64,000 bases of DNA from Corynebacterium sp. (GTDB taxonomy: Bacteria; Actinomycetota; Actinomycetes; Mycobacteriales; Mycobacteriaceae): assembly GCF_030532965.1 (NCBI RefSeq), contig NZ_JAUNKC010000016.1:1-64000 (forward strand), in the 5' to 3' direction. Below the pieces are notes generated by a model that did not search any database, was not told the DNA's origin, and worked only from the letters and a program-made list of their open reading frames with translations. The first letter of the stretch is position 1. Every line of letters begins with the position of its first letter. Positions 12,579 to 43,571 of this stretch are shown here, in pieces. A program made the position numbers and the translations under genes.

Positions 12579-12617
12579 CGTTATCACTCCTTTCGATACT
12601 CACGATGGCCGCTACTT

Positions 12618-14498: not shown

Positions 14499-14529
14499 GA
14501 TCGATCCCGCCAACCAGAAAAGCTGGGTA

Positions 14530-14886: not shown

Positions 14887-14900
14887 GGATGGCGAGGGGC

Positions 14901-25429: not shown

Positions 25430-26113
25430 TCAGGAGACATTTTCGGGCTTATTGAGCAACGCCACCACTAGATCCAAACGTGATTTCGCTCCGAAATCTT
25501 GCATGAGTGACGAGACTCGTTTCTTGATCGAGGACTCTGAGTACAGCATGTGCGAGGCAATTTCAGCATTGCTCATACCCGAACATAGAAGTTTGAGGAC
25601 TTTCTTCTCTTCAGGGTTCAAAGGCGAATCATCAGCAACCACTTGGTCCAAGAGATTGCGGTGATATCCCTCAAAGTTTTGGACTTTAGGAACCTCCCTG
25701 ATGAGGTTTTCAACAGAAGTCGGGGAGACAACCATTCCGCCATCAACGGCATCCCTGACCGCCTGGATAATGGACTTAGGGGATTGGCTTTTCAGAATGT
25801 ATCCTGCGCCGCCCCGGCCCAACACGCGTATCATGTTGTCATCGTCGTCGATAGAGGTAATGGCAATAAACCTGGGGGGATTCTTGAGTGCAAGAACTTT
25901 CTCAAGGAGGGTGAGACCGCTCATGGCTGGCATGTAAATATCCGATAGGATGACATCGACTTTCTGGTTTTCGATGATCTCGATAACCTCATGACCAGTT
26001 TTCACAACCCCCACAAGGTCAAACTCCTCGGAAGGTGAGAAGTACTTCGTCAGGGTTTCACGTGCCAGACGGTCATCGTCAACGATTACTATCTTGATAC
26101 GCTCGGTGCTCAT
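25430..26113 (-). CDS. NarL/LuxR-type response regulator (lanthipeptide locus)
   Basis: The protein has 227 residues. The receiver domain has the acidic pocket VDDD, the phosphoacceptor Asp58 (LSDIYMP) and the conserved TSI and LKSQS segments. The C-terminal LuxR helix-turn-helix is LNPEEKKVLKLLCSGMSNAEIASHM. The start is ATG 26113, with GAGGAG five bases upstream; a GTG at 26119 overlaps that site. It is the last gene of a kinase-peptide-regulator operon, convergent to nothing and just downstream of the lanthipeptide genes. It probably controls their expression. Confidence 0.85.
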   Translation of the reverse strand: MSTERIKIVIVDDDRLARETLTKYFSPSEEFDLVGVVKTGHEVIEIIENQKVDVILSDIYMPAMSGLTLLEKVLALKNPPRFIAITSIDDDDNMIRVLGRGGAGYILKSQSPKSIIQAVRDAVDGGMVVSPTSVENLIREVPKVQNFEGYHRNLLDQVVADDSPLNPEEKKVLKLLCSGMSNAEIASHMLYSESSIKKRVSSLMQDFGAKSRLDLVVALLNKPENVS

Positions 26114-26144
26114 TCTCACTCCTCAGGCTTATTTCGTCATCGGC

Positions 26145-26416: not shown

Positions 26417-27508
26417 CTATCTAACTGGGAATTCCCAGGTAGTGACCCAAAGTTCCCCCTTTGATACGCTCTCGAATGAGCCCCCTTCCCTCGTTATTTC
26501 TTCCCGGATTTGAGCCAGCCCAATCCCTGTGCTGAGGTAGCTCGTCGAACGAGTAGCGGCGATCTTGTTGGTAACCGTCACTACGATATCCTCATCGCAA
26601 CGCTCCACCTTTACCAGCACCTCACTATCCGAGGCACCATACTTCAGTACATTCGATGCAAGCTCAGGCATGACCGGCAAAGACAACGGCTCCAGCTTGT
26701 ACGCTCGCGCAAAAATAGAGTCATCCTTTACCACGGTGACGTTAAATCCATGGCTCTCAAGAAGATTCACAAAATACCCAATCTGGTCCGCCAGGTTGGT
26801 TTTAACCGCAGGAAGTTCCAATTCATCTTCATCCAACAAACGGATCAGAGTACGAACCTCCTCAATAGCCCTGCGGCTCTCCTCAGCGATGAGTTCCAGC
26901 TCTTCTTTCTTGTCCTCTGGAATGCCCGGACCAAAGCTAATACCCTCGGCACGCATAACAGCCGAGGTCAAAGATCTCGCTACAGAATCATGAAGGGTCT
27001 TAATGAGGATTTTCCTCTGTCGTTTCTTAGCTTCTTCAGCCCTAAGTTTTTCCTCACGGGACTTGCGTTCCGCCTTGTGTAGATAGGAACCAATCCCGAT
27101 CGTGGAAATGAACATAATCAAGGTAAAAAGCACATTTTCGATGGATTCCGGGACGAAGATACCCTCAAATATCTCAGTAACGGAGATCGCGAAGAACACA
27201 ACCCCATAGGCAATAGCCCATCTGATTCGGCTCATGTACGCCAGAAAACCCGTCACCGCTATCGCGCCGAGGATCGTGATGACGTTGCGTACTTCCCGTT
27301 CATAGGAAAGAACCAGGTAAAGAAACACAAATAGGCAGCACGAGAAGTGAGGATATCGACGCACCATGAAAATGCCAGCGATACTCACCAACACCACTAA
27401 TGTGGACGCGATATCCACCTTTCCCCAGAGGATAAAGGCGACAGACAAAACTGCAAAGACAGAGACAACAGCAGGCGCGACAAAATGGGGCGGGGTGCGG
27501 ACATTCAC
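26417..27508 (-). CDS. Sensor histidine kinase (HisKA_3 type)
   Basis: The 363-residue protein has five or six membrane helices in the first 150 residues with almost no outer domain. A coiled linker KAERKSREEKLRAEEAKKRQR follows, then the HisKA_3 dimer region with phosphoacceptor His173 (LHDSVARSL) and a HATPase domain (MPELASNVLKYG, GIGLAQIREEI). The start is GTG 27508, with AGAGAGGA nine bases upstream; a longer frame to 27538 exists. It pairs with the NarL-type regulator two genes downstream. A membrane-embedded sensor without an outer domain is typical of peptide or membrane-stress sensing. Confidence 0.85.
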   Translation of the reverse strand: MNVRTPPHFVAPAVVSVFAVLSVAFILWGKVDIASTLVVLVSIAGIFMVRRYPHFSCCLFVFLYLVLSYEREVRNVITILGAIAVTGFLAYMSRIRWAIAYGVVFFAISVTEIFEGIFVPESIENVLFTLIMFISTIGIGSYLHKAERKSREEKLRAEEAKKRQRKILIKTLHDSVARSLTSAVMRAEGISFGPGIPEDKKEELELIAEESRRAIEEVRTLIRLLDEDELELPAVKTNLADQIGYFVNLLESHGFNVTVVKDDSIFARAYKLEPLSLPVMPELASNVLKYGASDSEVLVKVERCDEDIVVTVTNKIAATRSTSYLSTGIGLAQIREEITREGGSFESVSKGELWVTTWEFPVR

Positions 27509-27779
27509 GTGACACGATCCTCTCTTACCGGCGCGCACTGCACATCATGCCGGTAGCAGAATTGAAGTTATCTAGCGGCTAATTTTACTCTCCTTCAAGG
27601 TTCGAGTCACCCAGGAAAACACGACAGCCCCACGGTTTCTCGGCATCCCATAGGTGTGCGCCCGAATGAAATAGGCGAAGCGATACGGAAGATAACCTGG
27701 CGGCATTCAGGATTTCTAAAGCACCTGACGTGTCACCTTCCGCCAAGCGTAATTGGTTCCGCTTCCTCAATCTGAAAAG

Positions 27780-27828: not shown

Positions 27829-30660
27829 TTAATGCCAGGGTGCACGGACTACAGCCGAACGGTGCCCTGCCAGCGAAAGTAATAGTTGCCCCACACCCGC
27901 AAGTCCACAGTATAGGCTGGTTGAGTAGTGTTCCTTCGTCAGGCCATCCCCGCACAGATCAGCGACAAGGAGCTCTGAAGCAATCGCACCAGCTTTCCCT
28001 TGGAGTTCTTCATCCTTCGCGAAGTACCCTAGATAATATAAAACTTCAAGTACTCCGATGTACCCGTGGCAAGCAGACATCCCCATATTGTCGACGTTTT
28101 CCATAAGGAAGGGGTGGATAGCTTCAAGTAGCTTCTTCGCTTGCGTTAACGTCGATTCTTCGCGGATAAGGTTGAGTGCAAGTGCTCCCAGACCAGCAGT
28201 TCCATGGCACCACCCCAACGATGGTTGATCTTGGCTAAGCGCCGCGTGAAGGATCGCGTTAATCTGGTGTTCCACTAGTTCGACGCTCACCCGCCGCCTG
28301 GATAAACGCGCACTCGCAACATACGCGTCAAGGATGCCAGCGGAGGAATGAGCAAATCCACCATCGTCAGGAACTTCGTCATTCCTTAGCAGCCATGACT
28401 CCGTGAAAATGCGAACCAGGGTGCTTAGTCGGCCGCAATCTTCACCTAACTCCGCGAGCATCCCAGCGATTTCAACGAACGCCCGGTATTGGCTGGCCAA
28501 CCCGTTAATTGCATCCATATTCAAGGTTGCATCCGGAACTAATCGTTCCTTCGTCATCTGTTCGATCAGCGTCAACATTGCTCGGTGCGCTGCATCCTTG
28601 TACACATCACGGTCTATTCGATCCCACTCAAGTGCATGAGCGCATGCCACCGCAGACAACAACAACCCAATGTTTCCCGTAGCAAGTCCACCAAGTTTCT
28701 TTCCCTGGATGGGGTTGCGCAGCAACACCCTTTGAAAACTCAGAGCGGCCTTGCGCAGCAGTGGTTTCACTGCTGCGTCCGCAGAAAACTTGTAATAGGT
28801 TGCTAGGAAGTATAGTGTTCCCGCCGTGCCGCCGTAGAAATCATCGTTACTCGCCAACACTTGCCAGTTTCGGTCGAAGTCCTCCCCCACCGAGGCGCTA
28901 AGGAAGTCTAGGCCAAAATGCGCATCCGGGTTTTCCCCAACCCGCTCGGTAATATTTTCCACGACATAACTCAGCATTTCCAGAACTGAAGCTTTCGCAG
29001 GCACATTCGTCCCAGACTGAATCCGATTATCCGAATATCTGCCCACAAACGACGCTTCAATCCAATGACATTGTTCCTTCGTCGCGTCTTCGACACGATC
29101 GAGACTCTTTAACTTTTGAAGAACATTATCAATCGCCGTGACTTCAATTACCTCACCTAAGGCTGGAATGGGCAGCTTCTGTCCGTCGAGAAGCACAATA
29201 TCTCGACTGCCCATGGCAACAGAAAAAGCGGGAATATCATCCTGCATAAGTTGCTGCCACTCCGCTTTCCACAATAATTCGTCACCCCAAATCCCAATTT
29301 GTGAACACGCTAGGGCAAAAAGGTAGGGGTCATCAGCGATAACGGGATGACTTGCCGTTGCTTGCACCTGTGCGTACCGATAGGTGGGAGTGACAATAAC
29401 CCTCGTCCGGATACTGTCGTAAGCGTGGAGAATCAGATCCCGAATAGCGTGACGGTTATCCGCCGCCCGTTTTAAAGTCGTGGCGAAAGCCGCCGTGATC
29501 ATGTTCTTCACATTCTCTAACGCCTGAGGTTCTTCCTCCAGGAATACGGTGTTTCCTGGATCCGTTGGAATGGCTTTCTGAATTTCAAAAGAGCGCGTTC
29601 CATCTGGCAGGGTTCGCACGACAGGGGCCGGAAAGGGGTGAATACCGCCTTCGGAGGGGCGGGCTCGCACAAGCCCCACCTCAATAGAGTTCGGGCCATT
29701 GCCGATCTTAAACGGCAATGTTCCCACCGACAGCACAGAATCCGCCCAACGGGTGCCATTTTCTGAATTCGTGCTTTGCAATCCGGGTCTAAAGAGGGTC
29801 TCCAAGTCAATAAGACGAGGAACGTTTCCTTCTACGATGAAATTCTCATTATGAAAATCCACTCCGTTGAGAATGTACCCCAACGCAGTCCACTGCCCCA
29901 CGGCGGAGTAGAACTTCTGCAGGTCTGTTACTTCGCCATCTTCTTGAAGAAACTCGCTCCAACTGTGATCACGTCGATCCCACGCCCTAGGTGGTTGTGC
30001 CATATCCAATAGAGAACAGACTTCGCTGATTAAGTCCCCACTGACCGGACAGTGCGGCCGGTAGATGAGTGTTCGATCAAGAAAATCTAGCCTAGCAACA
30101 GTCTGCAAACCTAAATGAGGATCACCAAGACCAAACGTAACTCGGGTGGGCGGATGCGCAATCCCAAGATAGTCACTGTCCGCCTGTAAGTCTCTTTCAA
30201 GACGGCAGCTGGCTGCCCCAACCCTTTGGTGGGCCCGTAAAAGACGAACTGCTAGGGCTGAGGATCCCGACACTTGGTACCCTGAGGAAACCGCCCGGTC
30301 GTGAAGCCACCGTCCCGCGATATCTGCAACAATTCTTTCCCACTGCTCTGCTGCAGCTGTAGCTATAGCCTCGCTGGTGGGCCATTCCTGCTCGACGATT
30401 TCCCGATAATGCCGATGTAAAATAGCGGCAAAGCTGGTAACAACCGGCGTATCGTAGCTAAGTTCATCTAGCGATGAACGAATCACCTTAGAACTTTCAA
30501 GACGAAGGGCAGCTGGCATGCTGGCCAACATATCCGTTGCGCTCTGTTCGATCTCCTGGGGGTGGAAGCCACTGAAGGTGCCTCCTGCGTCGTTCTGTCT
30601 TGCCTGCAGTCTCCCCATCAACTTACTGGCGATATTGCTCGTTAATTGCGCAGTGACCAT
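27829..30660 (-). CDS. lanM2: Lanthipeptide synthetase LanM (second copy)
   Basis: The protein has 943 residues. The N-terminal DUF4135 dehydratase/kinase-like domain shows GVDFHNENFIV and LIDLETLF, which match the catalytic D-x-H-x2-N and Asp-loop elements of LanM enzymes. The C-terminal LanC-like cyclase has the zinc ligands Cys818 (GWCHGTAG) and Cys864-His865 (SACHGYIG). It dehydrates Ser/Thr of a precursor and closes thioether rings in the cytoplasm. It is the last gene of the biosynthetic operon. Two different LanM enzymes with two precursors is the normal pattern of two-component lantibiotics; which precursor it takes cannot be read from sequence. Confidence 0.93.
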   Translation of the reverse strand: MVTAQLTSNIASKLMGRLQARQNDAGGTFSGFHPQEIEQSATDMLASMPAALRLESSKVIRSSLDELSYDTPVVTSFAAILHRHYREIVEQEWPTSEAIATAAAEQWERIVADIAGRWLHDRAVSSGYQVSGSSALAVRLLRAHQRVGAASCRLERDLQADSDYLGIAHPPTRVTFGLGDPHLGLQTVARLDFLDRTLIYRPHCPVSGDLISEVCSLLDMAQPPRAWDRRDHSWSEFLQEDGEVTDLQKFYSAVGQWTALGYILNGVDFHNENFIVEGNVPRLIDLETLFRPGLQSTNSENGTRWADSVLSVGTLPFKIGNGPNSIEVGLVRARPSEGGIHPFPAPVVRTLPDGTRSFEIQKAIPTDPGNTVFLEEEPQALENVKNMITAAFATTLKRAADNRHAIRDLILHAYDSIRTRVIVTPTYRYAQVQATASHPVIADDPYLFALACSQIGIWGDELLWKAEWQQLMQDDIPAFSVAMGSRDIVLLDGQKLPIPALGEVIEVTAIDNVLQKLKSLDRVEDATKEQCHWIEASFVGRYSDNRIQSGTNVPAKASVLEMLSYVVENITERVGENPDAHFGLDFLSASVGEDFDRNWQVLASNDDFYGGTAGTLYFLATYYKFSADAAVKPLLRKAALSFQRVLLRNPIQGKKLGGLATGNIGLLLSAVACAHALEWDRIDRDVYKDAAHRAMLTLIEQMTKERLVPDATLNMDAINGLASQYRAFVEIAGMLAELGEDCGRLSTLVRIFTESWLLRNDEVPDDGGFAHSSAGILDAYVASARLSRRRVSVELVEHQINAILHAALSQDQPSLGWCHGTAGLGALALNLIREESTLTQAKKLLEAIHPFLMENVDNMGMSACHGYIGVLEVLYYLGYFAKDEELQGKAGAIASELLVADLCGDGLTKEHYSTSLYCGLAGVGQLLLSLAGHRSAVVRAPWH

Positions 30661-30662
30661 GA

Positions 30663-31487
30663 TTACTTCACCCGACCTGTTCGATCAATCTTCCCCTTGT
30701 TGAAGAAGATAACAAACGCTGCCAGCGCAATAGTCACACTGAGGGAATACAGGATGCTTACGGGTTCGCCCCATAGGAACTTAGCGGGATCAGCCTGTTC
30801 AAAAAGGCGAGTAGCATTCTTGAAAGGCAGGAGGCTATAGAAGAATTTAGTGGATGGATCAGAGCCATCGATCATACCTTCCACAACCAAAATCCAAGCA
30901 ACAAGCACGGTCACGGCAGCAGACAAGTTGTTGGCTACGATGCTTACAGCGACCGCGAAGGAGACAGTCACAACAGATATTAAGATCGTGTTTCCAGCCA
31001 AAATGACGTAGGACCCAGCACTGTCACCAACAAACTGATGCCAGTCACGTCCAACAAGCGCCACGGTACCAAGTGTGGCACCGGAACTGAGGACCGTAGC
31101 AGCTAACATGACGCAGGCTCCCACCACCACCAAGCACAACCATTTTGCCGCCCAAATCACTGGGCGGCTCGGCAGGCTGAGTAGCTTGAGCTGCACAAAC
31201 TTAGTTGACTCCTCACGTAAGAGGTTGCGCGCTACCCAGAAGAACAACCCCAGAATCGCCAGCTGGAAAACACCACTAACAGCGGCACGCTCCGAGGGAT
31301 TAGCGTCCTCACTGGAATACCCGGCAAGAAGCGCGCTAAGTCCCACCGACCACGCCACTGCGCCAACAACGGTCACCATCAATATGATGTGGCCTACTTT
31401 GTCGTATTTCAACTGGAGCCACTCAGCCTTCACCGCACGTTGAATGGACTGTGTCAGCGGCAGCTTTGTTGTCGTTATTTCTTTCAC
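30663..31487 (-). CDS. ABC-2 permease, probable lantibiotic self-protection (LanE/G type)
   Basis: The 274-residue protein has six predicted membrane helices and a basic N-terminus. It starts at GTG 31487, overlapping the stop of the ATPase gene by four bases (GTGA), with GAGGTGG seven bases upstream. With the ATPase it forms a LanFE(G)-like exporter, which in lantibiotic producers removes the peptide from the membrane for immunity. Only one permease gene is present rather than the usual LanE plus LanG pair. Confidence 0.78.
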   Translation of the reverse strand: MKEITTTKLPLTQSIQRAVKAEWLQLKYDKVGHIILMVTVVGAVAWSVGLSALLAGYSSEDANPSERAAVSGVFQLAILGLFFWVARNLLREESTKFVQLKLLSLPSRPVIWAAKWLCLVVVGACVMLAATVLSSGATLGTVALVGRDWHQFVGDSAGSYVILAGNTILISVVTVSFAVAVSIVANNLSAAVTVLVAWILVVEGMIDGSDPSTKFFYSLLPFKNATRLFEQADPAKFLWGEPVSILYSLSVTIALAAFVIFFNKGKIDRTGRVK

Positions 31488-32392
31488 CGGAATTCCACCT
31501 CTTTTTCAGAAATCTGTTGGTAGGCCTCGGCAAGGGTTCGCCGCGCCTGTTCTAGGTAATAAAGATCCACACCAGTTTCACTAGAAGCCCGGGATACCAG
31601 CTCAGGGGCCACATTCACCTGTACCTGGTTGTCCGCTTCCGCCAGCATTTCAAAGCCTGGGTGTGTTTTAGTCAGGTGCTGGATGATTTGTTCATTGTTT
31701 TCGGACTGGAAGGAAGCTGCTTGAGCCCCAGCAGTGAGTTCCGACATGAAACCCTGCCATAGGGTCTTTCCTCGGCCAATGATTACCACCCGCGACGCTA
31801 GAAGCTCCGAGTCGGCGAGGAAGTGGCTAGAGATCAGCACCGTTCCACCGGAAGCGCAATGTCGTTTAAGGAGCTTATTCAACCAGGCCATCCCGTCAGG
31901 ATCTAGACCGTTCACTGGCTCATCAAGAATCAGAATTTTCGGGCTCCCAAGCATGGCAGCAGCAATACCACAACGCTGGCGCATACCTAGAGAGAATTGC
32001 GAGACTTTCCGGTCAGCAACGCTGGTCAAACCGCTTTCCGCTAAACAAACCTCGACACGCGATGTATCAATTCCCGCCAGTTCAGCGAATACTTGTAGAT
32101 TCTGTGCTGCTGTCAGATCCGTGTTGAGCCACGTGGCATCCAATAGGGAGCCCACCATTTGGATCGGTTCGTTTAAAGCCCGATAAGGTTCACCTTGAAT
32201 GAGAGCGGAACCGGTATCTGGTTCTTCCAGACCACAGATCATCCGCAAGAGAGTTGACTTACCAGCACCGTTGGGCCCGGCTAAAAGGGTTATTTCCCCG
32301 GCTACGACGTCGAAAGAAACATCGTCGATAACCTTTTTCTTCCCGTATGTCTTAGAAATCCCACGGATTTCAATGGCGTTACTAATACTCAT
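31484..32392 (-). CDS. lanF: ABC ATPase, probable lantibiotic immunity (LanF type)
   Basis: The 302-residue protein has Walker A AGPNGAGKST, signature FSLGMRQR, Walker B ILILDEPVNGLDPDG and the switch His in SSHFL. The ligand-specific C-terminal part is typical of BcrA/LanF-type ATPases. It overlaps lanT by four bases upstream and the permease by four bases downstream. The likely role is to power export of the mature lanthipeptides from the producer's own membrane. Confidence 0.85.
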   Translation of the reverse strand: MSISNAIEIRGISKTYGKKKVIDDVSFDVVAGEITLLAGPNGAGKSTLLRMICGLEEPDTGSALIQGEPYRALNEPIQMVGSLLDATWLNTDLTAAQNLQVFAELAGIDTSRVEVCLAESGLTSVADRKVSQFSLGMRQRCGIAAAMLGSPKILILDEPVNGLDPDGMAWLNKLLKRHCASGGTVLISSHFLADSELLASRVVIIGRGKTLWQGFMSELTAGAQAASFQSENNEQIIQHLTKTHPGFEMLAEADNQVQVNVAPELVSRASSETGVDLYYLEQARRTLAEAYQQISEKEVEFR

Positions 32393-34512
32393 GCTATTCC
32401 TTTCCGCATCAACTGATCGAGATAATCTGGTTCTTCAACCTCGACCCTGCCTGAATCAAGGAAGTGAAGAATCTTGTCTTCATCACCTACCGCTGTGGGA
32501 CGATGCGCAATACTTACCAACGTCATATCTAATTCCCGCAGCGCCTGGGTTATGGCACGCTCAGTTGGAACGTCGATCGCGCTTGTTGCCTCATCCAAGA
32601 TTAAGAGAGATGGACGTGTCACAATTGCCCTGCTCAGCGCAAACCTTTGACGCTGTCCACCAGAGAACGAATTTCCCATCTCCCCTACCGGGGTGTCTAA
32701 GCCAAGAGGTAGTTCGTTCACAACTTCTTCAAGCTGCGCAACCCGAAGAGCCTCCCAGATTTCCTGATCCGTGACGTCTCGACCAAAAGCGATATTGTCG
32801 CGAATACTCCCGGAGATCAAATAGTTTTCTTGCGGGACAAAACCGAAAAGCTGTGCTCGGGATTCAGGTGAGATCTCTGCAATATCAATCCCGTTGATGT
32901 GGACTCTTCCACGTGACGGGCGGTGCAAACCTGTCAGTAGCCGAGCAAAAGTCGATTTTCCGCTACCAGAGGAACCGACGAAGGTATTATGACTGTACCT
33001 ATCAATTCTTAAGTTCACCTGGTCCAAAGATTGCACAGAAGACCCAAGATAACGATAGGAGACATTCTCCGCAGTTATCTGCTCAATAGAGTCCACTCGT
33101 TGAGAACCCTCATATTCCTGAGGGATTTGAAGCAGATCATCTACCTTAGCCATCAGTCCGCGTGCTTCTGTAAGGGAAGTAACCCCATTAAGAAGTTGGC
33201 TCGTCGAGGAAATAAACACCGAGAAGAGGCCACTTGACGCCACCACGGCTCCTAGACCGCTTACTGAATTTGGGAATAGGAGGGAAATGATGATGGGAAT
33301 GAGCGGACCAAAGACAGTTAGTGCTGTGGTGACAGCGGTAATAACCCCAGTCCACACTGTTTTCAGCGTGGTCGAGTGCAAGTGCCGCTCATTTGTTTCC
33401 GCCCACCGGTCAAAGAAATGATCTTTGGTATTTGTCATTTTAATTGCTGCCATCGTAATGATGGTCTCTAACTGTTGACTAGACAATGCCCCACCTGCGG
33501 CTGCCTCTTCGCTGGCGTATTGATTGATGCGCTCAGCTGCTACGAAAAACACCAGGCACAGTACGGCAAGCAAACCGACAAGAATCAAAGCCATCAGTGG
33601 CCAAAGATAAAAAACCACTCCTAGGAGGGTTAGGACGGTAAGCGCGCTGAACACAACTGATGAGCCATTGATAAAGATCGTTGTGGATACGAAGTTAACG
33701 GCCGCGAGGGAATAGACAATGTCGCCTGGTGCATAAGTACTAAAAACATCCAGACGCGAGTCAAGCTTCCGTTTGACCCCAGCAGTACCGAGATCCCGCG
33801 CTGCAACTTTCAACAGGAAAGCTTCAAGGGCTGTTCGTGCCAAACTAACGGCCATAAACAGACCGACGGCAGCAACCAACCCTACAGCCAATACCGTCGT
33901 AGATAATGCTTCCCCGGAGGTAACCGCATCCACGACCGCTGATATCGCTATCGGGGCGGCACCAGAGCCTACAAGCATCAGCAGGCCAACAACTACTGTT
34001 GCCACAAGTAAGGCAGGGTTCGCCTTAAGTGATCTAAGAACAATCCCTAATGCTGGCGAGCGATACATATCACGAAGGTTCAGTTGGATACGTTTCAGTG
34101 CTGACTCGACCCCACGATCCGGGAAGATCCACCACTGTCGGCTGATCTTTTGCTCTGCTTCAAAGCGCGTCAATTTCACCCGACCCCGGCTGGGATCTAC
34201 GATCTTCACCCACCGGTTATCGACGCTTTCTACAAGACAAAAATGGCTGAAATCGAGGTTCACCATCACTTGGGAACCATCGCTCAATTCAGCTGCTATC
34301 TCATCTAACCCACCAGTACCTTCCTTTGATGGAACTCCATAATCAAGTACCAGGTGGCGGATATGTGCCGTTGACATTCCATCACGGCCAACCGGGTATA
34401 GTTCACGTAGTTGGTTAAGGTCAACGTCGACAGCAAGTCGCCGCAGGATCATAGCCGCGCAGACGAGTCCGCACTCCGCAGCTCTAGACTGTAGTAACAA
34501 TTTATAAGACAC
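32389..34512 (-). CDS. lanT: LanT: lanthipeptide exporter with C39 leader peptidase
   Basis: The protein has about 707 residues. The N-terminal C39 peptidase has the catalytic Cys in SRAAECGLVCAAMI, His in DFSHFCLVE and Asp in IVDPSRG. Six membrane helices follow (about 170-430), then an ATPase with GSSGSGKST, SFSGGQRQR and LLILDEATSAID. It removes the leader at a double-Gly-type site and exports the product. I prefer GTG 34512 (MSYKLLLQSR) because AGGA stands nine bases before it and C39 domains begin this way; the open frame runs to 34590 inside lanM1. Confidence 0.92.
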   Translation of the reverse strand: MSYKLLLQSRAAECGLVCAAMILRRLAVDVDLNQLRELYPVGRDGMSTAHIRHLVLDYGVPSKEGTGGLDEIAAELSDGSQVMVNLDFSHFCLVESVDNRWVKIVDPSRGRVKLTRFEAEQKISRQWWIFPDRGVESALKRIQLNLRDMYRSPALGIVLRSLKANPALLVATVVVGLLMLVGSGAAPIAISAVVDAVTSGEALSTTVLAVGLVAAVGLFMAVSLARTALEAFLLKVAARDLGTAGVKRKLDSRLDVFSTYAPGDIVYSLAAVNFVSTTIFINGSSVVFSALTVLTLLGVVFYLWPLMALILVGLLAVLCLVFFVAAERINQYASEEAAAGGALSSQQLETIITMAAIKMTNTKDHFFDRWAETNERHLHSTTLKTVWTGVITAVTTALTVFGPLIPIIISLLFPNSVSGLGAVVASSGLFSVFISSTSQLLNGVTSLTEARGLMAKVDDLLQIPQEYEGSQRVDSIEQITAENVSYRYLGSSVQSLDQVNLRIDRYSHNTFVGSSGSGKSTFARLLTGLHRPSRGRVHINGIDIAEISPESRAQLFGFVPQENYLISGSIRDNIAFGRDVTDQEIWEALRVAQLEEVVNELPLGLDTPVGEMGNSFSGGQRQRFALSRAIVTRPSLLILDEATSAIDVPTERAITQALRELDMTLVSIAHRPTAVGDEDKILHFLDSGRVEVEEPDYLDQLMRKGIA

Positions 34513-34534
34513 TGGTGTTTGTCCTATCTCTTCT

Positions 34535-37177
34535 CTAGAATCCCGCAAAAAGGGGTCGGTGAGTGGGGGCGTCAACCAACTGGAGGGCATGAATTAACCC
34601 GCCAATACCGTTGAGGTACCCCATGTCAAAAATGTTTCCCGGGTAACCGCAGTAGATTTCGGAGGACTCCAAGGTCTTCACAATGGAATCCCGGTATCGG
34701 ACTGGCACGTCTTCTCCGATCAAACCGTATTCTTCGAGCAACCAGAGAGCGCTAAGAATCCCTGCTACCCCATGGCAGAGAGAAACGTCGAGTGGCTGAC
34801 GATGAGTCTGGGCCTTAGCCAACTCCATGAAAGCCAAATCAACAAAAGCCGTAACGAGGTGTGAGTCTTCTCGAAGTTCACCTACGATCGCTAAGGTGCC
34901 AATGATGCCCGATAGACCATTGCACCATGCCAAACGCTTCTCAACCGGTTCATCCTGGACAAGTTTTAGCGCATAAGCTACTAGGTTATCTGCTAGTAAA
35001 TTCATTTTCTGCTCAACCTGCTCTGGCAGCAGGAATTCTTGTGCCTGACAAAATTTACTAAACCCATAAGCAGCAAGTAACGTTCCCGCAGCACCATGAG
35101 CCAGGCCATAATTTTCAGCGCTCAAAGAGGCTTGCATCCGTGGGAGAAGAAACTCACGTGCCTCCTGGTAAAGCAAACGGGCGGTCTCAGATTCAATAAT
35201 TACGTTGAGGTTTCCCAACGCCGCTACTGCGGATTCAACACCGCCGATGAAATCCGAGGTGACCGATTCCTTTCCGAGGGCACCTGTGAGGGCTTCAACT
35301 ACCTGGTGCATTCGTTCCGATTCAGCTGATGTAGAAGGACGGGTCTTATGCGTAACAAGAAGCGCCGTCCCTGGTCCGAAGCCGTGAAAGTTCATGGGCT
35401 CTTCCAGGTTTTGTCCAATATGTACAGACCAACGTTCCTCGGGTGCCCGATTCGAGAATCCGAGGGTGTCGTGCATCAACCAATCGGTGCCGTCGCCCAT
35501 CAGAAACGAACAGGAAAACGCGCCTAGGAATAGTCCTTCTTCCTGGATATCGCTAGACAACCAACGATTATCCATTGATTCATCCAGGTTGGTACGGCGT
35601 GCCTTTACCTCATCCACTAACTCATCCACGCAGATGGGACGGCTAGAGCGAATACCTGTAGCCGCCGCCAGCGCCTGAGCGTTAGCTTTGAGAACTTCGA
35701 TATAGGCGGAACCGTATTCGCCGACGAAATCAGCATGACGTTTACTTGGCAAGGAGAGCCGTTCAGAGAATCGTACTTTCCCACAATGATGTTTATTTCC
35801 GTCGTAGACGTTGCCGAAGAAATCTAGAACAAAGTATGGGACGTCGGCGACAGCGATTTGTTTCCTCTCCGCTACCCCAATTGCTGCCCCATCGGTACCG
35901 CGTGGACCAGAATCAAGAAGTTCCTCTGGACGATCCAACCCTGCGAGGGCTGCTGGCATCAAAGTCGCATCCAATATTGATGCATATACTCCTGTGCTCC
36001 TTAGAACTTGGCGCCAGAAATGTTCTTGCTCTGCTATAGCCAGAAACTCTGCTAGCTCACTACTGCGAGCTACGCTGCGTGCGGAAGCGAAAGAATCGAT
36101 CAGGATCTGGAATGCGTCTGTTAGATCAATGTCGTGCAGCCCATTCGGTGGCATCTTCTTCAGGTGAGGCTTCACCACCCTGCGGAAGGCAACATTGTCA
36201 TGCCCACCATTAACTACATCAAACGTGTCGAATTCGGGCGAGTCTCGTTCAGATTCAATCAACAACCCGCTGAAATACCTCCAGAAGGAGTTATCAGAGA
36301 GAGCCGATGGCACGAGTCCAGACGTCAGGATATCAGAGGCATCTGCGGGTAGTTCATCTGGAATCCGAAATTGAATCGCGGTTTCGCCGTCAATAACCAC
36401 GGGTTTTCCTGTGACCGAGCAAACCACATTATCTGCGTGGAGGTCGGTCGCTCCTAGGATATGACACGCTGCAAGTAAGGTTCCTGCGGCAGTCATATAA
36501 TTTTTCATGTCAACGTCAACGTTCTTCTCGCTAGCGGAGGGAATATATTGTTGCCAGCAGTGGTCGTCTACGTCGATTGTGTGGGCCACAAGCTCAAAAG
36601 GATCAGTTCCTAAAAAACGACATACTTGATCAATGAGTACTTCGCCCTTGCCACTACGTGGCTTATACATAACTTTGCCGTTGTTGGTAGTAACGAGAAC
36701 TGTGGTCTTCCCTTGGTTATGAGTCTCTTCATGGTGAAACCGCAAGGAGTGGATTACGTCAGTCTCCCCCACGCCCAGTTCCTGCAGGATCTGGCGGTCT
36801 TTTTCAAAATCGGAAAAGACCTGGAGCGTATACTCTAGGCTGTTGGAATAAACGGCATCAATAAGCGGCTTTAATCGCGGGTATTGTGCTTCAACTAGTT
36901 TTTCTCGTTGGTCTTCAAATTGGAGAAGTCGATCAAACTCCTCGTGTGCTTGCGTAGAACTAGCAAAGGGTTCTATTCCTTGCTTCTCCCGCCATTGATG
37001 GAAAACCGCAATGAGTGCCCGTTGCGAGATTTGTGTTGCCCTCGACGCGAACCAGCTCTTAACATCTGCAATTACGCTATCCGACGGGTGGAACCTTTCG
37101 CGAACAAATGCTCTGCGTAAATCCTGCTCAAAAGCCGTAAGTTTAGCGTCAAGGTAATTCGGGAATTCGCAATTCAT
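34535..37177 (-). CDS. lanM1: Lanthipeptide synthetase LanM (first copy)
   Basis: The protein has 880 residues. The DUF4135 dehydratase domain has GATDLHADNVV and VVIDGETAIQF, with the MYKPRSGKGEVLIDQ element typical of LanM. The LanC-like cyclase domain has the zinc ligands in AWCNGLSG and the Cys-His of SLCHGVAG. AAGGAG stands four bases before ATG 37177. It is the first large gene after the precursor genes, separated from them by a strong hairpin. It is clearly different in sequence from the second LanM, which suggests that each modifies one of the two precursors. Confidence 0.94.
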   Translation of the reverse strand: MNCEFPNYLDAKLTAFEQDLRRAFVRERFHPSDSVIADVKSWFASRATQISQRALIAVFHQWREKQGIEPFASSTQAHEEFDRLLQFEDQREKLVEAQYPRLKPLIDAVYSNSLEYTLQVFSDFEKDRQILQELGVGETDVIHSLRFHHEETHNQGKTTVLVTTNNGKVMYKPRSGKGEVLIDQVCRFLGTDPFELVAHTIDVDDHCWQQYIPSASEKNVDVDMKNYMTAAGTLLAACHILGATDLHADNVVCSVTGKPVVIDGETAIQFRIPDELPADASDILTSGLVPSALSDNSFWRYFSGLLIESERDSPEFDTFDVVNGGHDNVAFRRVVKPHLKKMPPNGLHDIDLTDAFQILIDSFASARSVARSSELAEFLAIAEQEHFWRQVLRSTGVYASILDATLMPAALAGLDRPEELLDSGPRGTDGAAIGVAERKQIAVADVPYFVLDFFGNVYDGNKHHCGKVRFSERLSLPSKRHADFVGEYGSAYIEVLKANAQALAAATGIRSSRPICVDELVDEVKARRTNLDESMDNRWLSSDIQEEGLFLGAFSCSFLMGDGTDWLMHDTLGFSNRAPEERWSVHIGQNLEEPMNFHGFGPGTALLVTHKTRPSTSAESERMHQVVEALTGALGKESVTSDFIGGVESAVAALGNLNVIIESETARLLYQEAREFLLPRMQASLSAENYGLAHGAAGTLLAAYGFSKFCQAQEFLLPEQVEQKMNLLADNLVAYALKLVQDEPVEKRLAWCNGLSGIIGTLAIVGELREDSHLVTAFVDLAFMELAKAQTHRQPLDVSLCHGVAGILSALWLLEEYGLIGEDVPVRYRDSIVKTLESSEIYCGYPGNIFDMGYLNGIGGLIHALQLVDAPTHRPLFAGF

Positions 37178-37233
37178 TTTTCTCCTTAGTAAGTGTGCAT
37201 TTATCGGGGTGGTTTTAGGATTTGAGTAAGTAC

Positions 37234-37268
37234 AAGTTCGGCCCCTCAGAATCTGAGCGGCCGAACTT
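37234..37268 (-). terminator. Intercistronic hairpin between precursor genes and lanM1
   Basis: AAGTTCGGCC (37234-37243) and GGCCGAACTT (37259-37268) are perfectly complementary and enclose a second stem CTCAG/CTGAG. There is only a weak T-run after it. In lantibiotic operons such a stem acts as a partial terminator or RNA stabiliser, so that precursors are made in excess of the enzymes. Confidence 0.75.
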
Positions 37269-37315
37269 CGAGGTTTAAATTAAGACGCGAAACTAATTTT
37301 TCGCGTTGGTAACTG

Positions 37316-37495
37316 CTATGCTTGCCGTCGTGCGACTGCGTAACCAGCCAAGCCGGTGAAGAAGGACACAACGGCAGCAGTAGTCAGATAGCTGTCAGAA
37401 CCCGTGATCCCGGTAGCCGCCACGCCAAGGCCACTGGCAATTCCTATCGCGACACCAATCAGGGTGTAAATGGTCTCTTTAGTAAACTGAGACAT
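37316..37495 (-). CDS. Small two-helix membrane protein, possible immunity peptide
   Basis: The 59-residue product begins MSQFTKETIYTLIGVAIG and ends YAVARRQA. It has two predicted helices (about 9-28 and 36-54) with a short outer loop GITGSDSY and a basic tail on the inside. It has no Cys, so it is not a lanthipeptide precursor. It lies directly between the beta precursor gene and lanM1, with AAGG about ten bases before the ATG. An immunity role in the producer membrane is my inference from position and size. I do not recognise the family. Confidence 0.7.
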   Translation of the reverse strand: MSQFTKETIYTLIGVAIGIASGLGVAATGITGSDSYLTTAAVVSFFTGLAGYAVARRQA

Positions 37496-37547
37496 GGAGG
37501 TTCACCTTTCATTTTCTACTAGTTACACTGGGACAAAGCCTGAAGGC

Positions 37548-37709
37548 TTAGCTGCAGCGTTTCGAGCACTTGGTGGTAGGGCACAGTGCAAGGGAAACTG
37601 GGACTATGGTGGTCCAGGTACCGCCATGTTGGGCTTGCTCGTTGTCGATCATTTCGCGCAGATCCTCACGTGCGTACCCCTCGACAAATCCGAAGTCTTT
37701 CTTAGCCAT
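37548..37709 (-). CDS. lanA2: Two-component lanthipeptide beta precursor
   Basis: The 53-residue product begins MAKKDFGFVEGYAREDL. The leader ends QAQHGG, a double-glycine site at 29-30, so the core starts at Thr31. The core ends SLALCPTTKCSKRCS, nearly the same as the C-terminus of haloduracin beta (...ALCPTTKCTSQC). Likely rings by analogy are Ser39-Cys43, Thr45 or Thr46 with Cys48, and Ser49-Cys52. The N-terminal Cys of haloduracin beta is absent. AAAGGAA precedes the ATG at good distance. It is transcribed between the alpha precursor and the small membrane gene. Confidence 0.92.
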   Translation of the reverse strand: MAKKDFGFVEGYAREDLREMIDNEQAQHGGTWTTIVPVSLALCPTTKCSKRCS

Positions 37710-37751
37710 TTTGAGTTCCTTTCAGTAAAGAATCGATATTGATTAGGTTGC

Positions 37752-37922
37752 TTAGTTGCAGCTTGGCATGCATTCCTTGGTAATAGTGCAGAATCCACCT
37801 CGATTACCAAGGAGGCGGCTCAGCCACATGTCGGCTTCGTAGGATTCGGTCATCTGAAGGTCGAGTTCCTGGTCCAACTCGTCCAGGATCTGATTGTCGG
37901 AAACATTGCTTGCAGTTGACAT
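37752..37922 (-). CDS. lanA1: Two-component lanthipeptide alpha precursor (lipid II-binding type)
   Basis: The 56-residue product begins MSTASNVSDNQILDELDQEL, an acidic leader. The C-terminal core holds SRLLGNRGGFC followed by CTITKECMPSCN, which matches lichenicidin alpha (...LCTVTKECMPSCN) and haloduracin alpha, including the CTxTxEC lipid II-binding motif. Predicted rings by analogy are Ser35-Cys45, Thr46-Cys51 and Thr48-Cys55. Unlike haloduracin alpha it has no N-terminal Cys pair. The leader-core border is unclear: the only GG (42-43) lies inside the conserved ring region. AGGAG stands six bases before the ATG. It is the first gene of the operon. Confidence 0.93.
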   Translation of the reverse strand: MSTASNVSDNQILDELDQELDLQMTESYEADMWLSRLLGNRGGFCTITKECMPSCN

Positions 37923-38614
37923 CTAGTTCTCCTGTCTACTCACTGCAAAATCGGATAGATGGACTTGTGAAAATTCAAAGAACAATTCTCATGAGGTTGC
38001 GGCGCTACTTGCTCCGTGGATGTTCACGTTTTCGAGCGTAACAACGGGAAAACTAGCGATTCAAGGAACTTTCGAACCCTCTCCACAGCAAAGAAAATGC
38101 TTAGATTTAAATAGGAAATCTATAAAAACAAAATAGGGATCCTGTTGATGTAAAAAATTCACAACCGCACTGTACAAGGCCATAAATGCGGCTTTAGGGC
38201 GCCCGCTCAAACAATCCAAAGTCACCAAATGGCAACCATAATCATCTTCATTTCCAGGCAAATCACTTATGCTACTCTTACCTACTGATCTACTTTAGTT
38301 ACCTACCAGACACAGGTTTTGAGTACCGGTATCCCGGGTTTGCGATACGGTCCGCAGCGGGACTACTAGGCCCCGTGGCCTAACTTTCGTTAGCGGTTGT
38401 TGTGGGTTGTGACTGTGCACATGTCGTCGTGACCGATAAAGATACGGTTCAACCTATTTGACAGACGTTAACACTAAACATGCAGGTGAGAGGGTTTTTA
38501 CCGCCCCGGTTGGATTGGCATATTTTGTTTGTTTATATAACACTGCGCGGCTGGTGGGGCGTCGTAAAGCAAAGTGCACGAGTGACGTTTGCGCTGTATT
38601 CGTTCTTCCCACGG
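37923..38614. other. Gene-free region between lanthipeptide and aromatic-acid loci
   Basis: The lanA1 promoter must lie in the left part on the minus strand and the mhp promoter to the right on the plus strand. AT-rich patches occur near 38100-38160 and 38515-38550 (a possible plus-strand TATAAC near 38536). No open frame here has a ribosome-binding site and protein-like composition. I could not locate either promoter with confidence. Confidence 0.5.
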
Positions 38615-38643
38615 TCACGTGTTCCGACCAGCGGAACACGTGA
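38615..38643 (+). promoter_or_regulatory. Candidate IclR operator, site 1
   Basis: TCACGTGTTCCG-ACCAG-CGGAACACGTGA is a perfect 12-5-12 palindrome about 100 bases upstream of the hydrolase gene. Its core GTTCC-N7-GGAAC (38621-38637) is repeated at 44616-44632 and, with one change, at 51586-51602. Confidence 0.7.
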
Positions 38644-38745
38644 TAGTAAGCCAAGGTGTAGCACCTTACCATCATGATTTAAACAACCAATCTTGTTTTC
38701 TGGGGTTTTAGCCGCCCAGTTCTTCGCGGTTCATGAAGGAGGAAA

Positions 38746-39615
38746 ATGTCCGATAAACAATACACCAGCGTCTGGGATGATCTGGCTGAGGTCGAGTTCA
38801 GCCAAGGATATATCGAGGCAGGGGGATACCGGACCCGTTATCTTCATGCCGGCACTCCTGATAAACCAACGTTGTTTATGCTTCACGGTGTCACCGGTCA
38901 CGCCGAAGCTTATGTGCGTAACCTTGCTGCGCATGCTGAACATTTCAATGTGTATGCCATTGATTTCATCGGGCATGGGTATTCCACGAAACCTGAGCAT
39001 CCGCTAGAGATCAAGCATTATGTGGATCAAGTTCTCGCGATCATGGATGAGCTTGGGGTTGAGAAGGCATATTTCTCCGGTGAATCCCTTGGCGGCTGGA
39101 CGACCGCGCGTGTGGCGCAGCTTTATCCCGAGCGGGTGGAACGCATTGTGCTCAACACAATGGGCGGGACGATGGCGAACCCGCAGGTCATGGAGCGTCT
39201 GTATACCCTTTCTATGGAGGCTGCGAAGGATCCTTCTTGGGAGCGGGTCAAAGCCCGGTTGGAATGGCTCATGGCAGATCCAACGATGGTTACCCCGGAC
39301 CTCATCCGCACTCGGCAGCGGATTTTTGAACAGCCTGATTGGCCTATGGCATGCGAGATGAATATGGCGTTGCAGAATCTTGAGATCCGTAAACGCAACA
39401 TGCTTTCCGACGACGACCTGCGCGCCATCCAAGCACCAGCGTTAGTGCTGTGGACAACCAAGGATCCATCTGGTCCGGTAGATGAAGGCCGCCGTATTTC
39501 CGAGTTGATACCAAACGGGCAATTGGCGGTCATGGAGAATTGTGGTCACTGGCCGCAATATGAGGACACCGAGACGTTCAACAAGATTCACCTCGACTTC
39601 CTCCTGGACCGATAG
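38746..39615 (+). CDS. mhpC: Alpha/beta hydrolase for meta-cleavage product (MhpC type)
   Basis: The 289-residue alpha/beta hydrolase has the nucleophile elbow SGESLGGW, the acid in WTTKDPSGP and the base in NCGHWPQYE. The oxyanion segment LHGVTGHAE is at the N-terminus. By context it splits the C-C bond of the ring-opened product made by the extradiol dioxygenase encoded next (2-hydroxy-6-oxonona-2,4-dienedioate in the phenylpropionate route), giving 2-hydroxypentadienoate and succinate. It is the first gene of the mhp operon, preceded by GAAGGAGG. Confidence 0.88.
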   Translation: MSDKQYTSVWDDLAEVEFSQGYIEAGGYRTRYLHAGTPDKPTLFMLHGVTGHAEAYVRNLAAHAEHFNVYAIDFIGHGYSTKPEHPLEIKHYVDQVLAIMDELGVEKAYFSGESLGGWTTARVAQLYPERVERIVLNTMGGTMANPQVMERLYTLSMEAAKDPSWERVKARLEWLMADPTMVTPDLIRTRQRIFEQPDWPMACEMNMALQNLEIRKRNMLSDDDLRAIQAPALVLWTTKDPSGPVDEGRRISELIPNGQLAVMENCGHWPQYEDTETFNKIHLDFLLDR

Positions 39616-39744
39616 TTTCCACCTGTTTCTTATCTGTATTTTCCGGATCATCAGTGTTTTCGCCTGAACCTGATGATTCGGTCTTACCCCTATCATTTTG
39701 CTTCGTCTACGACGATGGAAGCTTTAATTTTCAAGGAAAACATC

Positions 39745-40689
39745 ATGGCTCAATTTGCGCTTTTGGCTATGTCCCATAGCCCCTTACTTGGGATCAATGA
39801 TCCGGGTGATGAGGTCACAGCCAGCTTAAACGACGCGTTTTCACACGTTCGTTCTTTCGTTAACGATTTCGACCCCGAACTGATTGTCACGATCGCCCCG
39901 GATCACTACAACGGATTCTTTTATGATCTGATGCCACCCTATTGCATCGGATACGAAGCTTTGAGCGTCGGCGATTACGACTCAATTGAGGGGCCGCTTT
40001 CCGTTCCAACCGAGATCAGCGAGGAAATGGCACAGTTTGTCATTGACAAGGGGATAGATATCGCCATTTCCCGTCGTATGGAAATCGATCACGGAGCAGT
40101 GCAGCCCATTGAATTGCTATACGAATCTTTGACCGCAAAACCCACGGTACCGGTATACGTTAATGGCGTTGCCCGCCCGTTTGTCCCCATGGAGCGAGTT
40201 CGAAAGATGGGGCAGGCAATCGGTGAGTACTTAGCTGGACGAGATGAACGCATCCTCTTGATTGCCTCCGGTGGGCTTTCGCATGATCCGCCTGTGCCGC
40301 AATGGGCTACCGCCACCGATGAGCAGCGACAACTTCTGCTCAACGGACGTCATCCTACGGAAGAAGCGCGCAATAATCGGCAAATGAATGTCATCAACAC
40401 CGCTAAAGCATTCGCTCGCGGAGAGGCAGAAATTCTTGATCTGAACCCGGAGTGGGACCGGAAATTCATGGATGATTGCGCTTCCAATGACCCCACCAGG
40501 TTCGATGCATATCACGCCGATGACATGGATGAGCAGGCTGGCCATTCTTCCCACGAAGTGCGGTCCTGGGTGGCGGCGTTTTCCGCGCTGCATAGTGCGG
40601 CGGGCGCGTATTCAGTGGATTTTGAATATTACAAACCCATCCGGGAGTACATTGCTGGGTTTGGCATCATGATCGCCACTCCGAACTAA
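39745..40689 (+). CDS. mhpB: 2,3-dihydroxyphenylpropionate 1,2-dioxygenase (MhpB type)
   Basis: The 314-residue protein belongs to the LigB-type class III extradiol dioxygenases: MSHSPLL near the N-terminus, APDHYNGFFYDLMPPYCIG, EIDHGAVQPIELL, and SGGLSHDPP with a likely catalytic His. It uses Fe(II) and O2 to open the catechol ring. The start is ATG 39745, with AAGGA seven bases upstream; the frame is open upstream to 39673 but without a site. The overall pattern is that of MhpB from E. coli and Rhodococcus. Confidence 0.92.
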   Translation: MAQFALLAMSHSPLLGINDPGDEVTASLNDAFSHVRSFVNDFDPELIVTIAPDHYNGFFYDLMPPYCIGYEALSVGDYDSIEGPLSVPTEISEEMAQFVIDKGIDIAISRRMEIDHGAVQPIELLYESLTAKPTVPVYVNGVARPFVPMERVRKMGQAIGEYLAGRDERILLIASGGLSHDPPVPQWATATDEQRQLLLNGRHPTEEARNNRQMNVINTAKAFARGEAEILDLNPEWDRKFMDDCASNDPTRFDAYHADDMDEQAGHSSHEVRSWVAAFSALHSAAGAYSVDFEYYKPIREYIAGFGIMIATPN

Positions 40690-40761
40690 GTATGTAGCAT
40701 CACTGCGGTGGATAGTATCGCGTTTTCTTATCCACCCAAAAGCCAAGAAAGTATCCTCCGC

Positions 40762-41544: not shown

Positions 41545-41586
41545 TCTCACCATTTTGCTTTCCCATTGCCTTAATAAGGAACACCC

Positions 41587-42516: not shown

Positions 42517-42530
42517 CCCAAGGAATAATT

Positions 42531-43532: not shown

Positions 43533-43547
43533 TCACATCTTCGAGCT

Positions 43548-43571
43548 AAGTGGGGTGTTACTGCCCCACTT
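43548..43571. terminator. Bidirectional terminator between mhpE and the IclR gene
   Basis: AAGTGGGG (43548-43555) and CCCCACTT (43564-43571) pair with an 8-base loop and are followed by TTT on the plus strand. The stem overlaps the 3' end of the IclR coding sequence. Confidence 0.7.

What the first reader, a model, noticed from the sequence alone, without database searches (positions are those of the whole stretch)
37548..37922. Two unannotated lanthipeptide precursors form a two-component lantibiotic in a Corynebacterium
Two minus-strand genes of 56 and 53 codons read out as an alpha and a beta precursor. The alpha core holds CTITKECMPSCN, matching lichenicidin and haloduracin alpha; the beta core ends LCPTTKCSKRCS, matching haloduracin beta. 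Two LanM enzymes, LanT, an ABC immunity pair and a two-component system surround them. Two-component class II lantibiotics are known mainly from Firmicutes; I know of few from corynebacteria.
Basis: partly seen in the sequence, partly recalled or inferred. Interest (0 to 1): 0.93.

Follow-up and report, generated by a model that had tools for sequence, protein, structure and literature searches.

The report
Two-part Corynebacterium lantibiotic, unusual alpha leader
A genome that is most likely a Corynebacterium carries a gene cluster predicted to make a two-part lantibiotic, an antibacterial peptide pair of a kind known mainly from Bacillota, and its alpha precursor has no double glycine at the predicted end of its leader, so that half is likely matured by a different route from its partner.

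Summary
Minus-strand genes at 37752-37922 and 37548-37709 encode an alpha precursor (Pfam Lantibiotic_a, 50.7 bits, cut-off 27) and a beta precursor (NCBIfam LchA2/BrtA2, 38.9, cut-off 26). With them stand two LanMs, a C39 LanT, an ABC pair, a small hydrophobic protein and a two-component system. It is not unique: 6 of 242 genomes of the genus have an alpha match, 5 above cut-off; four of them share its core genes; one NCBI record already reads 'lichenicidin alpha family lanthipeptide [Corynebacterium phocae]'; a 2020 survey reported such actinobacterial pairs. (1) In 20 of 21 anchored alphas of this type no GG/GA/GS/AG precedes the core, where a conserved Met stands; the 30 other anchored relatives have one, and 6 of 6 betas keep GG or GA. 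(2) LanM2 has Arg at the catalytic-Lys position in 6 of 6 rows, against Lys in 14 of 14 others. (3) LanM1 groups with lacticin's second LanM, LanM2 with its first, on long branches. No product or activity has been shown.

The parts
37752..37922 (-). alpha precursor, 56 aa; predicted leader MSTASNVSDNQILDELDQELDLQMTESYEADM, predicted core WLSRLLGNRGGFCTITKECMPSCN
   Evidence: PF14867 and NF000539 above cut-off; alignment A2; boundary inferred from the conserved Met
37548..37709 (-). beta precursor, 53 aa; leader ends ...QAQHGG, predicted core TWTTIVPVSLALCPTTKCSKRCS
   Evidence: NF038161 above cut-off; alignment A3
37316..37495 (-). 59-aa hydrophobic protein, conserved next to the beta gene; predicted immunity or accessory peptide
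   Evidence: blastp matches at the same place in G154, G205, G207; a weaker counterpart (27% identity) found by eye in G169; no Pfam or NCBIfam match; function inferred
34535..37177 (-). LanM1, 880 aa, predicted to modify the beta precursor
   Evidence: DUF4135 + LANC_like; catalytic and zinc residues present, Glu at the CylM D252 position; trees and AU test
32389..34590 (-). LanT, peptidase C39 + ABC exporter; longest ORF 733 aa, start more likely GTG at 34512
   Evidence: PF03412, PF00664, PF00005; start inferred from alignment with the LanTs of G154, G205, G207
31484..32392 (-). ABC ATPase, predicted self-protection (LanF-like)
   Evidence: PF00005; best NCBIfam match TIGR03740 lantibiotic protection ABC, below its cut-off
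30663..31487 (-). ABC permease, predicted self-protection
   Evidence: PF12698 weak, below cut-off; counterparts at the same place in G154, G205, G207, G169
27829..30660 (-). LanM2, 943 aa, predicted to modify the alpha precursor; Arg in place of the catalytic Lys (YRP for YKP)
   Evidence: DUF4135 + LANC_like; residue table; trees
26417..27538 (-). sensor histidine kinase, predicted regulator
   Evidence: PF07730; a kinase/regulator pair also flanks the clusters of G205 and G207, not matched in G154, G169 or G265
25430..26119 (-). LuxR-type response regulator
   Evidence: PF00072 + PF00196

Best explanation
This is a gene cluster predicted to make a two-component class II lantibiotic whose alpha precursor, unlike its beta partner, has no double glycine at the predicted end of its leader and is therefore likely freed of that leader by a protease other than the LanT that is predicted to cut beta. 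Mechanism, step by step. Shown by sequence: the two precursors, two LanMs with dehydratase and cyclase residues, LanT with its C39 triad, the ABC pair and the two-component system. Inferred: LanM1 dehydrates and cyclises beta, LanM2 does so for alpha. Inferred: LanT exports both and cuts beta after HGG. Inferred: alpha leaves with its leader on and is cut at the conserved (Asp/Glu/Gln)-Met boundary by a protease that is not a constant part of the cluster, giving a 24-residue core. Inferred from the family: mature alpha binds lipid II through its CTxTxEC ring, and beta then joins to form a pore in the target membrane. Inferred: the ABC pair and the 59-aa protein protect the producer, and the kinase/regulator controls expression.
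For: Precursor families above curated cut-offs; PDB match to lichenicidin A1. The order alpha-beta-small-LanM1-LanT-ABC-ABC-LanM2 is kept in G154, G205 and G207; G169 has these genes with a second beta. Purifying selection between G205 and G207: dN/dS 0.05-0.19 for alpha, beta, LanM1, LanT, ABC ATPase and LanM2, no amino-acid change in the small protein (permease and regulators not computed). GG-like motif within 22 residues before the LGN anchor: absent in 20 of 21 anchored rows of the corynebacterial type, present in the 30 other anchored rows. The only GG in the window's alpha lies inside the ring segment LGNRGGFC; relatives have LGNQGE, LGNNGR, LGNEGK there. Beta leaders end in GG (5) or GA (1) in 6 of 6. 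LanT keeps Cys, His and Asp. No leader protease is a constant neighbour: no S8 peptidase lies in any of the six clusters, and S41 is beside the cluster in G154 alone. LanM assignment: split of LanM1+LtnM2 from LanM2 plus alpha-type enzymes 100/99; holding LanM1 with the alpha-type enzymes is rejected, p-AU 0.001.
Against: No transcript, mass or activity exists. No sigma-70-like promoter was found in 37100-38750 (0 found, 1.5 expected). The LanM assignment rests on long branches: itself warns that LtnM2 and the LanM1 rows are long branches that meet, the tested group was named after the first trees were seen, and LicM2, recalled as the lichenicidin beta enzyme and present only as a 375-residue fragment, moved from the beta side to the alpha side. 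A C39 peptidase with looser specificity would fit the leaders as well as a second protease does. Only 30 neighbouring or cluster proteins were profile-scanned; two besides LanT match peptidase-type families: the S41 gene of G154 about 2.7 kb upstream of alpha, and the hydrolase at window 38746-39615, which matches Hydrolase_4 (serine aminopeptidase S33) as well as Abhydrolase_1. Arg at the catalytic Lys of LanM2 could mean reduced dehydratase activity. One row of the type, P0015, has AG at the boundary, and P0020 has GA 22 residues before it.
Confidence: 0.6

Rival explanations
1. An ordinary two-component lantibiotic: LanT's C39 domain cuts both leaders, and its specificity in this clade has widened to accept (Asp/Glu/Gln)-Met in alpha beside GG in beta.
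For: One LanT per cluster and no leader protease that is a constant neighbour; its C39 domain differs, by eye, from six other LanTs by a short insertion and by loss of a Gln three residues before the catalytic Cys; the [DE]L of the alpha leader lies 12-14 residues before the boundary, close to the 14 residues counted by eye from the helix Leu/Ile to the end of the beta GG.
Against: C39 peptidases remove leaders at GG sites (PMC7268733, passage read); by the (E/D -8)(L/M -7) rule of class II leaders in the same passage the LanT site would fall 5-6 residues earlier, at TE in the window, with no GG there.
Confidence: 0.28
2. The locus is a decaying or silent cluster: alpha lost its cut site and LanM2 its catalytic Lys, so no active pair is made.
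For: Two normally conserved features are missing; no consensus promoter was found.
Against: Both changes are shared by G000, G154, G205 and G207, whose LanM2s are 35-46% identical apart from the close pair G205/G207; frames are intact, the remaining catalytic and zinc residues are kept, and dN/dS is 0.05-0.19 between G205 and G207.
Confidence: 0.08
3. Two independent one-component lantibiotics that share an operon and do not act together.
For: Two LanMs, one for each peptide, would allow separate products.
Against: The alpha and beta types are those of known synergistic pairs, and the pair stays together in five genomes.
Confidence: 0.04

Closest known systems
Lichenicidin / haloduracin (two-component class II lantibiotics)
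   Same: Alpha core pattern S-x(3)-GN-x-G-x(2)-CTxTxECMPSCN, the Ser-to-Cys distance of 10 kept in the 51 anchored rows, and a PDB match to lichenicidin A1; beta of the LchA2/BrtA2 model; two LanMs and a C39 LanT.
   Different: No GG-like site at the end of the alpha leader; both cores have three Cys only, without the extra N-terminal Cys of haloduracin and lichenicidin (their full sequences recalled; P0037/P0039 show the extra Cys for lichenicidin alpha); Arg for Lys in LanM2.
Lacticin 3147 (Lactococcus plasmid pMRC01, L042) and the Streptomyces sp. NBC_01431 cluster (L041)
   Same: alpha-beta-LanM-LanT-LanM gene order.
   Different: LanM1 of the window sides with their second LanM and LanM2 with their first, so the enzyme order appears swapped; their alpha leaders keep GA; they carry an oxidoreductase gene after the second LanM, and none was matched among the window's cluster genes.
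Actinobacterial lichenicidin-alpha-like pairs, families II 4 / II 49 (Walker et al. 2020, PMC7268733)
   Same: Alpha of lichenicidin type with an actinobacterial beta partner, reported from genome mining (passages read).
   Different: Corynebacteri* does not occur in that main text; whether the window's relatives are among its sequences was not tested; the leader peculiarity is not mentioned in the passages seen.
Roseocin family (PMC10027976)
   Same: Two-component lantibiotic of an actinomycete.
   Different: Single LanM, NHLP leaders, alpha without CTxTxEC (passages read).

Membership tests
Two-component class II lantibiotic (lichenicidin/haloduracin type) | alpha precursor with the lipid II motif CTxTxEC | tested here: met
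   CTITKEC; PF14867 50.7 bits, cut-off 27
Two-component class II lantibiotic (lichenicidin/haloduracin type) | beta partner of a known beta family encoded next to it | tested here: met
   NF038161 38.9 bits, cut-off 26; 42-base gap
Two-component class II lantibiotic (lichenicidin/haloduracin type) | LanM enzymes with dehydratase residues and LanC zinc ligands | tested here: met
   Both LanMs of the window keep D347, H349, N352, D364, H254, T512 and Cys-Cys-His; LanM2 has R for K274, LanM1 has E for D252 (CylM numbering). Pfam cut-offs passed, but both score below the TIGR03897 LanM cut-off (208 and 266.6 against 304)
Two-component class II lantibiotic (lichenicidin/haloduracin type) | LanT exporter with an N-terminal C39 peptidase | tested here: met
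   PF03412 58 bits, cut-off 22; catalytic residues aligned
Two-component class II lantibiotic (lichenicidin/haloduracin type) | typical but not defining: GG/GA-type cut site at the end of both leaders | tested here: not met
   Beta HGG; alpha none
Two-component class II lantibiotic (lichenicidin/haloduracin type) | thioether rings in the products | not testable with these tools
   Needs mass spectrometry
Two-component class II lantibiotic (lichenicidin/haloduracin type) | synergistic killing by the two peptides | not testable with these tools
   Needs an assay
Roseocin family | single LanM for both precursors, NHLP leaders | tested here: not met
   Two LanMs; no leader-family profile among the NCBIfam matches of either precursor at E up to 0.1

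The most novel reading that the evidence does not exclude
A corynebacterial lineage of two-component lantibiotics has split maturation: beta is cut by LanT at double glycine, while alpha has lost that site and is cut at a conserved acidic-Met boundary by another protease, so the pair becomes active only where both proteolytic routes are present. On the same alpha branch the modifying LanM works with Arg in place of the catalytic Lys.
Probability: 0.45. Interest if true: 0.62.

Novelty: new variant of a known kind. Interest (0 to 1): 0.42.

Why it matters
It gives a defined clade of lantibiotics, under purifying selection in the one pair of genomes tested, in which the two halves of a synergistic pair appear to be matured differently. 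That makes two questions testable by co-expression in laboratory E. coli: what a C39 LanT really requires at its cut site, and whether a LanM dehydratase can run with Arg at the position of the invariant kinase Lys. If active, the peptides would be candidate antibacterials from a genus known (recalled) from skin and mucosa.

Tried and rejected
Genome-contig scans with LanM1 and with alpha confirmed no relative, so organism names could not be read from there. The window's genome gave no 16S match, so the genus rests on kinship plus the C. phocae alpha. Plasmid searches: full alpha no match; alpha core only Streptomyces sp. NBC_01431; window 1-24900 no match. Order-wide PF14867 search: 1 of 397, the window's own genome, drawn evenly from a larger group, so it samples the genus thinly. 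A leader protease was sought as Peptidase_S8: 7 hits in 6 genomes, none in a cluster; the window genome's hit scores 276.3 against a cut-off of 278.75 for T7SS mycosin, beside an EccD gene, so it was rejected as a cluster protease, though not excluded as the cutter. Peptidase_S41: 2 of 6 genomes, near the cluster in G154 only and on another contig in the window's genome, so it is not a constant partner. The AlphaFold model of LanM2 had pLDDT 62.2 from 5 sequences; too weak, no fold search was run. The RGG inside the window's alpha as the cut site was rejected: other species lack GG there, and a cut there would open ring B. In the residue table my column 'R506' was a mislabel; CylM R506 is the first Arg of RNVIRPT, and the aligned residue is Arg in all 20 rows printed. 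Trees: G169_M2 and G195 were dropped, and six long rows (G221, G265_M1, G265_M2, G000_C4, G169_M1, Strep_M2).

Full report
Observation. The two ORFs are present as described. Alpha passes the Pfam Lantibiotic_a cut-off and the NCBIfam plantaricin C model, and its core aligns to lichenicidin VK21 A1 in the PDB. Beta has no Pfam match but passes the NCBIfam LchA2/BrtA2 model. Two core patterns, written after the sequences were seen, occur once each in the window and never in 100 resamples.

Cluster. All genes are on the minus strand: alpha, 42 bases, beta, 52 bases, a 59-aa protein, 138 bases, LanM1; then LanT, ABC ATPase, ABC permease and LanM2 close together, and a histidine kinase and response regulator after 290 bases. 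The longest LanT ORF overlaps LanM1 by 56 bases, but alignment with the LanTs of G154, G205 and G207 points to a GTG start at 34512. Upstream of alpha lies a 0.8-kb stretch whose longest minus-strand ORF has 73 aa, then a plus-strand operon of meta-cleavage type (hydrolase, LigB dioxygenase, FAA hydrolase, acetaldehyde dehydrogenase, aldolase); downstream lie a universal stress protein and a short-chain dehydrogenase. I read these as ordinary chromosomal neighbours.

Organism. The tools withhold the name. Genome G169 belongs to the same GTDB genus; its alpha is identical to P0013, labelled Corynebacterium phocae by NCBI. So the genus is most likely Corynebacterium.

Distribution. PF14867 matches 6 of 242 genomes of the genus at E up to 0.001, 5 of them above the cut-off (G265 is below, 22.9 bits); DUF4135, the LanM dehydratase domain, is found in 9 of 242. 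All six alpha genomes have two DUF4135 genes near alpha. In G154, G205 and G207 the order alpha-beta-small-LanM1-LanT-ABC-ABC-LanM2 is kept; G169 has beta1-small-alpha-beta2 and then LanM1-LanT-ABC-ABC-LanM2, its LanM2 cut by the contig end; in G265, a more distant type, no beta, small protein or permease was matched. G205 and G207 also have a kinase/regulator pair, placed upstream. Between G205 and G207, dN/dS is 0.06 (alpha), 0.08 (beta), 0.19 (LanM1), 0.05 (LanT), 0.18 (ABC ATPase) and 0.17 (LanM2), and the small protein is unchanged at amino-acid level. The system is therefore kept by selection, at least in that pair.

Leader peculiarity. A profile search with eight alphas gave 51 proteins. 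Of 55 rows examined (49 of those 51, the partial P0026 and P0028 under 40 aa dropped; four genome alphas; two Streptomyces peptides, one of them a beta), 51 had the ring anchor: 31 with a GG/GA/GS/AG motif in the 22 residues before it and 20 without; four rows had no anchor (P0005, P0021, P0051 of the same type, and the Streptomyces beta). All 20 without the motif are of the corynebacterial type; the 31 with it are 30 other alphas and one row of the type, P0015, where AG sits at the boundary itself. Lacticin 3147 alpha, translated later, has GA before its core. Rows are not independent: leaving out P0005, P0011, P0015, P0021 and P0051 (insert, odd tail or truncation), 16 complete sequences of the type make 10 groups at 80% identity. 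At the boundary stands (E/D/Q)M before W, F or G in 15 of these 16, the other being P0009 (EL). The class II motif (E/D -8)(L/M -7), given in PMC7268733 (passage read), lies at -14/-13 from the boundary (-13/-12 in five of the 16), so a canonical LanT site would fall six (or five) residues earlier. That is the layout of two-step precursors such as P0029 and P0030, FGAGEGDVTPE-GLSSWLGN (that those are cut in two steps is recalled for their family), but with the GG position filled by, for example, TE, IK, LT, IG or VG. The beta leaders end in GG (5) or GA (1) in 6 of 6. I take this to mean that LanT cuts beta and that something else cuts alpha; a widened LanT specificity is the main rival.

Search for the cutter. 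Twenty window proteins and ten neighbours of the G154, G205 and G169 clusters were scanned against Pfam. Besides LanT, two match peptidase-type families: an S41 gene in G154 (L015:11285-12535, about 2.7 kb upstream of alpha) and the window's 38746-39615 hydrolase, which heads the meta-cleavage operon and also matches the S33-type Hydrolase_4. S41 is present in 2 of 6 genomes, in the window's genome on another contig; S8 is present in 6 of 6, never in a cluster. So there is no constant partner protease, and the cutter, if it is one, is unidentified. Smaller or farther ORFs were not scanned.

Enzymes. CylM mutagenesis covers K274, D347, H349, N352, D364 and elimination residues; K274A kept a little activity (PMC4550811, passages read). 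In the 20 LanMs aligned here all keep D347, H349, N352 and D364. LanM2 has Arg at K274 in 6 of 6 rows (G000, P0053, G154, G205, G207, G169; not independent), while the other 14 rows have Lys. P0054 also has Arg and P0055 Lys. LanM1 has Glu at D252 in 5 of 5 rows, the other 15 rows Asp. Zinc ligands are kept in LanM1 and LanM2 rows, apart from the truncated G169 LanM2; G195, not part of such a cluster, lacks them in the frame aligned. In trees LanM1 sides with LtnM2 and the Streptomyces second LanM (96/96, 85/90), LanM2 with LtnM1 and the Streptomyces first LanM, and more loosely with two Priestia enzymes that sit beside single alpha-like peptides. With six long rows left out the split has 100/99 support and the opposite grouping has p-AU 0.001, but that call also warns of long branches that meet, and the group was named after the trees were seen. 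That LtnM1 serves alpha and LtnM2 beta is recalled. LicM2 changes side, which lowers my confidence. If the assignment is right, both peculiarities, the missing cut site and the Arg, lie on the alpha branch.

Known or new. Two-component clusters in actinobacteria have been in print since 2014 (PMC3951391, passages read), and lichenicidin-alpha-like actinobacterial pairs since 2020 (PMC7268733, passages read). A 2025 survey of respiratory Corynebacterium counts 6 lanthipeptide clusters without detail in the passages seen (PMC12188740). A survey of aerodigestive-tract genomes (PMC8549736, passages read) showed none of this type in what I saw. Seven library searches on the subject listed no paper whose title or abstract start describes a corynebacterial two-component lantibiotic or a GG-less alpha leader; the library holds open-licence papers only, and most listed papers were seen as listings. 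I file it as a new variant of a known kind: membership rests on LanM-modified alpha and beta precursors, met by sequence; the leader site is typical, not defining, and is not met in alpha.

Limits. Nothing here shows expression, modification, export or killing. No consensus promoter was found before alpha. The LanM2 structure model was too weak to use.

Noticed in passing
L043 (G000:C4:8000-24409), 11603-16371, minus strand: A second class II locus in the same genome: a third LanM (888 aa) followed by a C39 LanT at the contig end, with ORFs that look like transposase remains beside it (by eye); the precursor may lie beyond the contig end.
   Followed up: partly
L019:16566-17333: G169 (C. phocae-like) has two beta genes around alpha; the first has a fourth Cys and a GA leader end.
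   Followed up: partly
P0005: An alpha of this type, from an unnamed source, carries an in-frame insert between the LGN ring and the CTITKEC ring.
   Followed up: no
L033 (G220:C96:25717-26373): A LanM dehydratase domain in another genome of the genus has an in-frame TAG; it looks broken.
   Followed up: no
L023:12949-13182: G265 has a different alpha type with AAGQG in its leader and two long LanMs; no beta was found by similarity.
   Followed up: partly
window 38746-44517: A meta-cleavage aromatic degradation operon with an IclR regulator lies next to the cluster, divergent from it.
   Followed up: partly
L015:11285-12535: In G154 a Peptidase_S41 gene lies about 2.7 kb upstream of alpha in the same direction; a possible cutter there, but no S41 match was found in four of the six genomes.
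   Followed up: partly
L019:19833-22028: The G169 LanT has Pro where other C39 domains have the Gln six residues before the catalytic Cys, counted by eye in the alignment (its oxyanion-hole role is recalled).
   Followed up: no
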